This document shows, in pieces, positions 55,593 through 64,000 of a stretch of 64,000 bases of DNA. The DNA comes from an uncultured Dokdonia sp. (GTDB lineage: Bacteria > Bacteroidota > Bacteroidia > Flavobacteriales > Flavobacteriaceae). Below the pieces are notes generated by a model. The model saw only the letters and a program-made list of their open reading frames with translations, had not been told where the DNA came from and did no database searches. The translations under genes and the position numbers were made by a program. Numbering within the stretch: the stretch's first letter is position 1; each line of letters begins with the position of its first letter. The stretch lies in NCBI GenBank assembly GCA_947503305.1, contig CANNDF010000002.1, positions 186,001 through 250,000 of the forward strand. The letters are read 5' to 3'.

Positions 55593-56441
55593 TTAGTTTT
55601 TAGAATATGTAGATTTTGATTCTAATTCTATAAGCTTGCTTTCTAATTGGGTAAGACGTTCATAGATGTCTATAGGTTCTGGCATTTGTTTTGAGGCATA
55701 CATACTTACGTACCATACCTCTTCTACATCTTCAATTTCCATGGTATACGTAGGGAAATTGCCGTCTACATTATCAGATTTTAAAATTAATTTTCCACTT
55801 TCTTTAGATCTATTGATAACCCGTTTTATAACAATACCATCATTTTTACTTACGATGACATAAATTCTGCCGTCTTTTATATCGTCAAAACTATCGACAT
55901 ATCTTCCGAAGACAAGATCACCATCATATAGCGTGCGGGCCATAGAGTTCCCTTTTATTTCAAAACATCTATAGGTATTATTAGTTAAAAAAGGCATTTT
56001 AAAGGCGGGTAATGTTTCTATATATTCTTCATCATCATAGCCATTTAAATAACCAGCTCTGGCTTTAGAAGGGACATAGATTATATTTTCTTCTCCTGAG
56101 GGGTCTACCGAAATAATTTTAGGCAATCCCAAAACGGGAGGATTTGCCGGGTTTTGATGAGAAGATGTGAGAAACATTTGATCTGTTTGTCCAAAAAAAT
56201 AATTGGGATTGATATTGCAACTTTCAATAATACTAAGTAACAGATCATATCCTGGTTTTGTTTTTTTTCTGGAACCGTCACCTTGAAGTCTTCCTGAAGT
56301 AATACTGTCTATCGTAGTACTTGTAACTCCAACTTTTTTAGCAAAAGAACTATTGTTGAGATGTAATCCATGTATGACTTCTTTGATTTTTGAGTGGATA
56401 TCTAGGGTATTCTCCATATGAGTAGGTATAGTAGCAAACAA
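55593..56441 (-). CDS. XRE/S24 (LexA/CI-like) repressor
   Basis: N-term HTH SSFAKKVGVTSTTIDSITSGRLQGDGSR; FEIKGNSMARTLYDGDLVFGRYVDSFDDIKDGRIYVIVSKNDGIVIKRV (S24 peptidase-like). Confidence 0.92.
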   Translation of the reverse strand: MFATIPTHMENTLDIHSKIKEVIHGLHLNNSSFAKKVGVTSTTIDSITSGRLQGDGSRKKTKPGYDLLLSIIESCNINPNYFFGQTDQMFLTSSHQNPANPPVLGLPKIISVDPSGEENIIYVPSKARAGYLNGYDDEEYIETLPAFKMPFLTNNTYRCFEIKGNSMARTLYDGDLVFGRYVDSFDDIKDGRIYVIVSKNDGIVIKRVINRSKESGKLILKSDNVDGNFPTYTMEIEDVEEVWYVSMYASKQMPEPIDIYERLTQLESKLIELESKSTYSKN

Positions 56442-56531
56442 ATTACAGATAATTTATGAATATGATTTGTTTTTGTGTAAAATGTTTGGTTTAAAGTGGT
56501 TATTTGCCAAATATATAATTTATTACATAAT

Positions 56532-56552
56532 AATACAAACATTTGTTGTATT
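56532..56552. promoter_or_regulatory. Operator-like palindrome
   Basis: AATACAAACATTTGTTGTATT, 7-bp outer arms, in the divergent repressor/tail intergenic region. Confidence 0.5.
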
Positions 56553-56905
56553 TCTTAATTTTTTTATTTTTAATAGATTGGTATTCAGATATTTAATAAT
56601 ATCTTTTTTAATGTAATGTTATATAATACTTCTTGCTTACAAGTCACTTGTATTCAGTCATATATGATATTTATGCTTAAAGTAAATTACGTGTCATATA
56701 AGAAATTATAAGGGAAAATTGATAATGTGGTAAAACCGTAAATAAATATGGTAATAACATAATTAATTGATATATAAGCATTTGTGTGTAAATTTTTTTA
56801 ATCTTTTTGAAATTTCAATAGGACTAGCGCAAATGCTCTTATTTACTGAGGTATCTTCTGATTTAGATATTAAGAGTTCATAAATTTATATTGCAAAGAC
56901 GGGTT

Positions 56906-56915
56906 AACATATGTT
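56906..56915. promoter_or_regulatory. Operator-like palindrome AACATATGTT (site A)
   Basis: Perfect 10-bp palindrome. Confidence 0.55.
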
Positions 56916-56932
56916 TTTTACTTGGATTAATA

Positions 56933-62633: not shown

Positions 62634-62708
62634 TTTAGAATTCTATAAACGCAGTTTAAAAATAATTAGGACAACTATAGCACGCCTCCTTTTTTAATTC
62701 GCAACATC

Positions 62709-63197
62709 ATGAAAAAAGAAGAAACCTCGCATATCAATGTTTGGAAAAAAGAGCATACGCATATTATTAAAATTTATAGTGATGAAAATAAGGATGAGTA
62801 TGCGTATTGTAAGCTCCCTACAATTGCAATTATAGAAGCCTACAATCAATTAAGAGAGGAAAACATTTATAAAGCTTTACAGGAGGTCTTTACATCTAGT
62901 GTATTAGGAAGCCTAGCATATGATAATGAGTTTATGATCTCAGCTGGAAAAGCATTAATACAACAAGTAATGGTAGATAAAAAACATACTATTAATAGAG
63001 AATCTGGCAAAGATGAGATGAAAAAGAGAGCAGCAATTGTTAGGCATTATTTTCATGTAGACCCCTATCAATTGCCTATTAATGAATTCTATAAACTAGT
63101 AGAAGAAGCACTATGGCTTCAAGAAGAAGCTAAAAATCAATTAGAACAAGTCATTACCAAAACCATGGAGAATCATTTTTCTACACAAAGCTATTAA
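62709..63197 (+). CDS. Tail assembly chaperone-like protein B
   Basis: YAYCKLPTIAIIEAYNQLREENIYKALQEVFTSSVLGSLAYDNEFM aligns by eye with protein A. Confidence 0.55.
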   Translation: MKKEETSHINVWKKEHTHIIKIYSDENKDEYAYCKLPTIAIIEAYNQLREENIYKALQEVFTSSVLGSLAYDNEFMISAGKALIQQVMVDKKHTINRESGKDEMKKRAAIVRHYFHVDPYQLPINEFYKLVEEALWLQEEAKNQLEQVITKTMENHFSTQSY

Positions 63198-63220
63198 CAC
63201 AGAATATAAATCAATATACT

Positions 63221-63796
63221 ATGAGTTTTAATATAAACTTAAATAACAATTTAGAAGCATATCAACAAGAGTTAGAGTATGGACTAAGTGAAGCTATAAA
63301 CTTTAATAATCAACAATCTCAGGATTTTATTATAGATAGCACAGGAGGAGAGTTTAGTCTACCCGTAGTTGCACCTTTAATTTTTGAACCCTTGATTCGG
63401 CGGGATTTAGTATTACCAGTATTGCGTATAGATGCAGTATCAATATCTGCTAGTAGGTCTAAGATCATTCAAAAAACGAGAGTAGAGGGGAGAAATAATA
63501 CCATTAAAGAACATATCTCAAATGGAGATTATACAATCTCTGTAAATGGAATAATTGCAGAAAGTGAGTTTTCTCAAGAGTATCCAAAAGGGAAATTATT
63601 TCTTTTAAAACAATTTTTAGATGCACCATATGCATTGAAAATTACACATGCAATTCTTAATCGATTAGGAATTTTTGAGATCGTTATTGATTCTTATAAC
63701 ATTCCTTCTATAGAAGGGACTAAGAATATTCAAAAATTCTCAGCTCAAGCAACTTCAGATGAATCGTCAGAACTAATTATAAGAAACAATGCTTAA
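63221..63796 (+). CDS. DUF6046-like tail/baseplate protein
   Basis: VAPLIFEPLIRRDLVLPVLRIDAVSISASRSKIIQKTRVEGRNNTIKEHISNGDYTISVNGII. Confidence 0.7.
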   Translation: MSFNINLNNNLEAYQQELEYGLSEAINFNNQQSQDFIIDSTGGEFSLPVVAPLIFEPLIRRDLVLPVLRIDAVSISASRSKIIQKTRVEGRNNTIKEHISNGDYTISVNGIIAESEFSQEYPKGKLFLLKQFLDAPYALKITHAILNRLGIFEIVIDSYNIPSIEGTKNIQKFSAQATSDESSELIIRNNA

Positions 63797-64000
63797 TCTA
63801 AATAGTAAAATAATCATCTATGAAACAGATGACGCCTTACAACCCACAAGTACATCGTATGAGTTTCGATATGTAAAAGATATTCGGATCAATTCAAATT
63901 ATGAAACACTTACGGATACAGCTACGATACAAATGCCTAAAAAAATTAATACAAACTTTTTAAGTGCACAGGAAGCTTTTGACGTGGTTGTCAACACACT
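63789..64000 (+). CDS. Start of baseplate hub-like protein (truncated by window)
   Basis: MLNLNSKIIIYETDDALQPTSTSYEFRYVKDIRINSNYETLTDTATIQMPKKINTNF...; 8-bp overlap with upstream gene. Confidence 0.6.
   Translation, partial: MLNLNSKIIIYETDDALQPTSTSYEFRYVKDIRINSNYETLTDTATIQMPKKINTNFLSAQEAFDVVVNT

What the first reader, a model, noticed from the sequence alone, without database searches (positions are those of the whole stretch)
55593..64000. Candidate headless contractile particle (tailocin / domesticated myovirus-like tail) with its own repressor
Seen: an S24-type repressor is divergent from a collinear set of sheath-, tube-, chaperone-, fibre-, DUF6046- and hub-like genes. The first structural genes begin directly after the repressor region; no integrase, terminase, portal, capsid or replication genes are visible anywhere in the window. 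Established: R-type tailocins keep tail plus regulation plus lysis modules and lack heads. Inference: this is a tail-only locus that makes a bacteriocin or injection particle. The window ends inside the hub gene, so tape measure, spike, baseplate and cargo genes are unseen.
Basis: partly seen in the sequence, partly recalled or inferred. Interest (0 to 1): 0.85.

Follow-up and report, generated by a model that had tools for sequence, protein, structure and literature searches.

The report
Headless contractile tail with toxin cassettes
A marine Dokdonia bacterium carries a complete virus tail without a head, under its own stress-type switch, and its relatives in Flavobacterium pair the same tail with interchangeable toxin and putative immunity genes where the virus's tail-length ruler used to be, so it is probably a toxin-delivering particle that bacteria use against other bacteria.

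Summary
The finding is confirmed and extended. The window lies in a Dokdonia genome. Downstream sequence completes a 20.6 kb locus: hub, spike, PAAR-like tip, baseplate, fibres, holin, then host genes. No terminase, portal, capsid or integrase is present. The first structural gene folds like a tail cap (best match: the cap of the tailocin monocin). The core tail genes match Mu-like Winoviridae phages one to one, but the tape measure protein is missing. The same headless locus occurs in 25 of 351 sampled Flavobacterium species, at least four other Dokdonia genomes (two decayed) and one further genus. It is under purifying selection.

In 33 of 33 Flavobacterium-type loci the gene after the tail chaperone, where phages keep the tape measure gene, shares a 45-residue N-terminus but has one of 12 unrelated C-termini; following genes covary like immunity genes. 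Two further payload types occur. A LexA-like repressor, a conserved operator-like site, a 59-aa HTH gene and a shared promoter box define a regulon. In Dokdonia the box lies upstream of a 1488-aa cargo homologue 6 kb beyond the tail.

Best reading: a tape-measure-less, SOS-type, toxin-armed tailocin, fitting neither the R-tailocin nor the eCIS definition. Loading and killing are inferred.

The parts
55593..56441 (-). LexA/CI-like S24 repressor
   Evidence: Peptidase_S24 and phrog_4. Putative Ala-Gly cleavage site (KARAGYL), Ser (GNSM) and Lys (IKRV) conserved through the family alignment. A 63-67% homologue is in every tail-bearing Dokdonia/G301 genome even when unlinked; the tail-less genomes tested have only a ~32% paralogue.
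56935..56953 (+). operator/promoter-like 19-bp motif ACATATGTTGCATATTTGT, 20 bp before the terminator gene
   Evidence: Present with 0-3 mismatches just upstream of the terminator gene in 15 of 15 headless loci; overlaps a TAnnTTTG Bacteroidota-type -7 box (own knowledge).
56974..57708 (+). tail terminator / cap protein (g244)
   Evidence: AlphaFold model (core residues 1-160 about 80 pLDDT). Best PDB matches: cap of Listeria monocin 9j1j (E=3.4e-6), T5 p142, lambda gpU, Mu terminator, diffocin collar.
57752..57931 (+). 59-aa helix-turn-helix protein, candidate late activator
   Evidence: Conserved 54-73% at the same position between terminator and sheath in 15 of 15 headless loci; absent from the control prophage and from G040. 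Activator role inferred.
58164..59396 (+). contractile sheath (DUF2586)
   Evidence: homologous to sheaths of Winoviridae phages.
59427..59852 (+). tail tube
   Evidence: phrog_4579; 72-75% identical in Flavobacterium and G015, 90% in G301.
60443..60790 (+). tail assembly chaperone (p19076)
   Evidence: phrog_19076. Orthologue of Peternella_1 gp46, the gene just before that phage's tape measure gene. Fold resembles 3fgx and, weakly, HK97 tail chaperone 2ob9.
60873..62633 (+). fibre-like protein occupying the tape-measure slot in this genome
   Evidence: N-terminal module shared with the fibre at C2:257553; 50% identical to the N-terminal half of a Dokdonia 980-aa protein. No tape-measure similarity.
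62709..63197 (+). second tail chaperone (chap162), paralogue of 60443-60790
   Evidence: Profile-profile match to p19076, P=6e-10; no counterpart found in the two Winoviridae phages.
63221..63796 (+). DUF6046 baseplate hub-associated protein
   Evidence: orthologous to phage gp41/gp48.
63789..64000 (+). baseplate hub, first 70 of 436 codons (continues to 65099)
   Evidence: phrog_4930, E=6.9e-37. The locus continues with spike 65105, DUF4280 PAAR-like 66061, gp25-like 66803, 67083, baseplate J-like 67590, tail I-like 68643, collar fibre 69370, fibre 71553, holin 73510 and small genes to 76157.

Best explanation
The locus encodes a headless, capped contractile particle derived from the tail module of a Mu-like (Winoviridae-type) flavobacterial phage and kept by the host as a weapon. 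SHOWN by sequence: the complete tail; no head, packaging or integration genes; no tape measure protein; a LexA-type repressor with intact putative self-cleavage residues; a conserved operator-like site; a small HTH gene; a holin; and, across the family, interchangeable toxin-like genes with fixed N-termini. INFERRED: DNA damage triggers repressor self-cleavage, which frees the tail operon; the 59-aa HTH protein then activates the promoters that carry the shared box; sheath, tube and baseplate assemble and are closed by the cap; polymorphic toxins load through their N-termini, guided by the retained tail chaperones, into the space the tape measure protein left, or ride on the PAAR-like tip; holin and lytic enzymes burst the producer; fibres bind related bacteria, contraction injects the toxin, and adjacent immunity genes protect siblings. 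In the window's own genome the likely cargo is the 1488-aa protein at C2:268462-272928.
For: Complete tail and no head genes across 35-76 kb in every headless locus examined, while the same search recovers terminase, portal, capsid, neck and tape measure in control prophage G518. Cap fold. One-to-one orthology with Winoviridae tails. No tape measure by profile search. 25 of 351 Flavobacterium species carry it at E about 1e-181 to 1e-196. dN/dS 0.00-0.23. Cargo after the chaperone in 33 of 33 loci, 28 distinct proteins, 12 C-terminal clusters. Following-gene similarity tracks cargo similarity, 6 of 6 pairs, Fisher 4e-7, pairs not independent. Toxin-like domains: DNA/RNA endonuclease E=1.2e-33; M23 peptidase, PAAR-linked metallopeptidase and weak JAB and CdiA tRNase matches. 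Repressor co-occurs with the tail even when unlinked. In G000 the two best promoter-box sites in 72 kb are a back-to-back pair 27 bp apart upstream of the 1488-aa gene, the geometry seen at Flavobacterium cargo promoters.
Against: No experiment: particle formation, loading, lysis and killing are all inferred. In the window's genome no toxin lies inside the tail operon; the 1488-aa gene is 6 kb away, and its N-terminus matches the cargo motif only moderately (profile P=1.8e-4; single sequence not significant). No endolysin is inside the Dokdonia operon. Two Dokdonia relatives have lost hub and baseplate J, so the system can decay. Without a tape measure the control of tube length is unexplained.
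Confidence: 0.74

Rival explanations
1. Ordinary R-type tailocin: the particle kills by membrane depolarisation alone, and the neighbouring toxin-like genes are unrelated defence or competition genes using the locus as an integration hotspot.
For: Headless tail plus S24 repressor plus holin is tailocin anatomy; [quoted passage not shown]
Against: No tape measure protein. The toxin-like genes share one N-terminus and sit directly behind the tail chaperone in 33 of 33 loci. Cargo promoters share the box used by tail operons. PAAR-toxin fusion in the tail operon.
Confidence: 0.15
2. A new eCIS-like injection system aimed at eukaryotic cells (protists, algae, animals) rather than bacteria.
For: PAAR-like tip and polymorphic cargo with shared N-termini resemble eCIS; several hosts were isolated from fish, plants or water (record names).
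Against: No AAA+ ATPase (Cis15) or tape measure in the locus. Immunity-like genes accompany the cargos. Peptidoglycan hydrolase and nuclease domains suit bacterial targets. Self-lysis and an SOS-type switch are tailocin traits.
Confidence: 0.12
3. A decaying prophage remnant that happens to retain its tail.
For: Dokdonia pacifica and G014 lack hub and baseplate J genome-wide; the G701 locus has broken genes.
Against: The same headless set is intact in most Flavobacterium loci examined, with dN/dS at most 0.23, conserved regulatory sites and one copy per genome.
Confidence: 0.05

Closest known systems
Winoviridae (Mu-like flavobacterial myophages; Peternella_1, pippi8-1)
   Same: Sheath, tube, chaperone, DUF6046, hub, spike, gp25-like, baseplate J-like, tail I-like and fibre genes are orthologous and largely in the same order.
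   Different: No terminase, portal, capsid, replication or tape measure genes; adds a cap gene, a second chaperone, a 59-aa HTH gene, a repressor and toxin cassettes.
R-type tailocins (R-pyocin; monocin and diffocin by fold)
   Same: Headless contractile tail, cap with monocin-cap fold, LexA-like repressor plus a small positive-regulator candidate (compare PrtR/PrtN, own knowledge), holin.
   Different: Lacks the tape measure that R-type bacteriocins have (PMC12210884); family carries toxin/immunity cassettes, not known for R-tailocins (PMC10598620).
eCIS (Afp, PVC, AlgoCIS)
   Same: Contractile particle with PAAR-like tip and cargo that shares N-terminal sequences; PVC payloads load by N-terminal signal peptides (PMC11495950).
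   Different: No Cis15 ATPase and no Cis14 tape measure; sheath is DUF2586; repressor, holin and immunity-like genes present.
Streptomyces CIS effectors Sle1 and Tme
   Same: An effector connected with the tape measure concept and with swappable functional domains (PMC13277306, PMC11126660).
   Different: Those effectors are related to tape measure proteins and Sle1 acts in an intracellular CIS; here the cargos have no tape-measure similarity and instead occupy its genomic slot.
Type VI secretion (subtypes i-iii)
   Same: No tape measure; PAAR-linked toxins with immunity.
   Different: No TssB/TssC, ClpV or membrane complex in the locus; has fibres, holin and repressor.

Membership tests
R-type tailocin | Contractile tail genes without head or packaging genes | tested here: met
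   with prophage G518 as positive control
R-type tailocin | Tape measure protein (Cis14) present | tested here: not met
   Profile of three phage-type TMPs finds none in headless loci but phage TMPs find those of G518 and G040; PHROGs finds none as a full protein
R-type tailocin | Cap/terminator closing the tail | tested here: met
   Fold match to monocin cap and phage terminators
R-type tailocin | SOS-type repressor control | tested here: met
   S24 domain and putative cleavage residues, operator-like motif; induction itself not tested
R-type tailocin | Lysis cassette | tested here: inconclusive
   Holin in the locus; M15 endolysin in Flavobacterium, CHAP in G015; in G000 only an Amidase_3 gene 5 kb upstream of the repressor
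R-type tailocin | No protein cargo | tested here: inconclusive
   Toxin cassettes in the family; loading not testable
eCIS (Afp/PVC type) | AAA+ ATPase Cis15/Afp15 | tested here: not met
   No ATPase domain found in the Pfam scans of the locus proteins
eCIS (Afp/PVC type) | Tape measure Cis14/Afp14 | tested here: not met
eCIS (Afp/PVC type) | Toxin cargo delivered through the tube | not testable with these tools
   Cargo genes found; loading and delivery need experiments
Type VI secretion system | Two-protein sheath TssB/TssC, ClpV and membrane complex | tested here: not met
   Single DUF2586 sheath; no such Pfam hits in the locus
Prophage (Winoviridae) | Terminase, portal and capsid | tested here: not met
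Gene transfer agent | Head and terminase genes that package host DNA | tested here: not met

The most novel reading that the evidence does not exclude
The tape measure protein of a phage tail was replaced by polymorphic toxins: a fixed N-terminal motif, handled by the retained tail chaperone, packs the toxin in the tube lumen. This would make a tailocin that injects toxins and either sets tube length through its cargo or leaves it unset, as T6SS does.
Probability: 0.4. Interest if true: 0.88.

Novelty: new variant of a known kind. Interest (0 to 1): 0.76.

Why it matters
Tailocins and toxin-injecting particles are usually kept apart: R-tailocins have a tape measure and no known cargo, eCIS have an ATPase and cargo. 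Published CIS screens drop loci lacking these markers (PMC12210884, PMC8213781), so this family falls between the filters. If it works as inferred it links the two classes, gives Bacteroidota a tailocin with interchangeable warheads, offers short N-terminal sequences as candidate loading signals, and makes testable how a contractile tail is built without a ruler. No description of it was found in the open-access library.

Tried and rejected
Prophage or GTA: no head genes, with a working positive control. T6SS or eCIS membership: markers missing. Tape measure hidden elsewhere in the locus: profile and PHROGs scans negative; the only TMP-like hits are M23 peptidase domains in cargo. Neat empty site in other Dokdonia: MeaB and the sigma factor are conserved, but the other flank is rearranged, so no insertion scar could be defined. 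RNA families in the locus: none. Sheath tree to root the headless clade: branches to the phages are too long, so placement and number of origins stay unsettled. N-terminal motif in the 1488-aa protein from single sequences: within the range of controls; only the two-sequence profile and the promoter boxes support the link. Upstream Amidase_3 as part of the operon: present in 4 of 5 tail-bearing Dokdonia genomes but unlinked in the others and without the box. A 46-bp repeat of window 60340-60385 elsewhere in the genome is only a short imperfect match around a palindrome.

Full report
Place and extent. The window is G000:C2:186001-250000; relatives of the same genus are Dokdonia (D. pacifica DSM 25597 among them). 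Downstream sequence shows the operon running to C2:262157. Order after the window: hub, spike, DUF4280 PAAR-like tip, gp25-like, a 98-aa protein, baseplate J-like, tail I-like, collar fibre, second fibre, holin, small genes; then MeaB, a sigma factor and other host genes. No terminase, portal, capsid, integrase or tape measure gene is present. GC is about the same as the flanks.

What each gene is. Sheath, DUF6046, hub, collar, holin and repressor have direct family hits. Profiles of the family match Winoviridae phages one to one for chaperone, DUF6046, hub, spike, gp25-like, 98-aa, baseplate J-like, tail I-like and fibre (phage maps). Functional names for the small baseplate genes rest on that orthology and position. 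The gene before the sheath, without any family hit, was folded: its best matches are the cap of Listeria monocin, T5 p142, lambda gpU, the Mu terminator and diffocin collar. The chaperone model resembles 3fgx and, weakly, the HK97 tail chaperone.

Headless as a family. A sheath scan of named genomes gave 18 Flavobacterium-type records and five Dokdonia records. A species-wide count gave 25 of 351 Flavobacterium species with the headless-type sheath and 3 with a phage-type sheath, clearly separated in score; among 400 genomes spread over the family only the window's genome and G301 carry it. In windows of 35-76 kb around these loci, searches with phage head proteins find nothing, whereas the control prophage G518 yields terminase, portal, capsid, neck and tape measure. 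G040, from another genus of the family, has a separate tail-only locus that keeps a tape measure. Core genes show dN/dS of 0.00-0.23 in two species pairs. D. pacifica and G014 have lost hub and baseplate J.

Missing ruler, polymorphic cargo. In Winoviridae the tape measure follows the tail chaperone. In 33 of 33 Flavobacterium-type loci the gene directly after the orthologous chaperone encodes a protein with a conserved N-terminus of about 45 residues (IELKDTSxSEMxRFRQIML...) and one of 12 unrelated C-termini among 28 distinct proteins. The close pair F. aquidurense and [Flexibacter] sp. ATCC 35103, with most core genes above 90% identical, share only the first 50 residues of this protein. The next gene covaries with the cargo. 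A second cargo type has a conserved N-terminal region of several hundred residues and often ends in M23 peptidase; a third is fused to DUF4280 with a metallopeptidase-like domain. G301, whose locus is collinear with the window's, holds an endonuclease cargo (Endonuclea_NS_2, E=1.2e-33) and a second large cargo in the slot between the two chaperones. The second chaperone is a paralogue of the first.

Regulation. The S24 repressor keeps its putative cleavage and catalytic residues across the family. A 19-bp motif lies just before the cap gene in 15 of 15 loci. Where the repressor is not beside the tail it is found elsewhere in the genome at 63-67% identity, and the tail-less genomes tested lack it. 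In four Dokdonia relatives that unlinked repressor sits beside a large unknown gene and, in three, a cargo homologue. A 59-aa HTH gene between cap and sheath is conserved in 15 of 15 loci. A 20-bp box (CTTACTGAAACTACTGAATA) precedes cap, sheath, hub, gp25-like, endolysin, fibre and cargo genes in Flavobacterium, with 3-8 strong sites per locus and none in the control prophage.

Cargo in the window's genome. A 1488-aa gene at C2:268462-272928 is homologous in its middle to the Flavobacterium and G015 cargos, and is found only in G000 and, remotely, G015 among 18 Dokdonia genomes. The two best box sites in 72 kb form a back-to-back pair 27 bp apart before this gene; none of 60 shuffles reached the better score, and the same geometry occurs at Flavobacterium cargo promoters. 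Its N-terminus aligns with the cargo motif in register, P=1.8e-4 together with its one close homologue. I take it as a probable cargo in the regulon.

Known or new. R-type bacteriocins have fibres and a tape measure and lack the ATPase; T6SS i-iii have the ATPase and lack the tape measure (PMC12210884). This locus lacks both. [quoted passage not shown] The nearest precedents are tape-measure-related effectors of Streptomyces CIS (PMC13277306, PMC11126660) and N-terminal loading signals in PVC (PMC11495950). I therefore call it a new variant, working like a tailocin that delivers toxins, and not a full member of either class.

Limits. Everything functional is inference. Loci were taken as held; assemblies are drafts in part. 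Fisher pairs and motif counts involve related sequences, so their p-values are optimistic; the box model was trained on sites chosen for similarity, but the G000 sites were not in the training set.

Noticed in passing
window 49704-50297: Signal-less 197-aa Amidase_3, homologous to the endolysin of phage pippi8-1 (E=2e-38); 81% homologues in three tail-bearing Dokdonia genomes but on other contigs. Possible lytic partner.
   Followed up: partly
L004:10463-15696 (C2:268462-273695): 1488-aa probable cargo with a His-rich, nuclease-like C-terminal region (by eye), followed by a 253-aa possible immunity gene with a weak relative in a Flavobacterium cassette.
   Followed up: yes
L211, L212, L213, L215: In four Dokdonia genomes an unlinked copy of the tail repressor stands divergent to a 977-1179-aa unknown gene, followed in three of them by a cargo homologue and small genes; G105, G099 and G100 hold homologues of the large gene elsewhere.
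   Followed up: partly
L018:1983-4805 (G015:C89:46982-49804): Fibre protein of 940 aa whose C-terminal part looks like a Hint/intein-type autoprocessing domain, by eye.
   Followed up: no
L024, L025 (G040:C1:791642-807490): Second, distant tail-only locus in another Flavobacteriaceae genus, with S24 repressor, glucosaminidase-like gene and a normal tape measure; looks like an ordinary tailocin and a useful contrast.
   Followed up: partly
L070-L087: IMG/VR lists many of these headless loci as viral contigs; no head genes were recognised in the related loci checked, so they are probably misclassified as viruses.
   Followed up: partly
L020, L022: D. pacifica and G014 keep sheath, tube, fibres and CHAP-like gene but no hub or baseplate J anywhere in the genome: decay at one conserved chromosomal site shared with G015.
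   Followed up: partly
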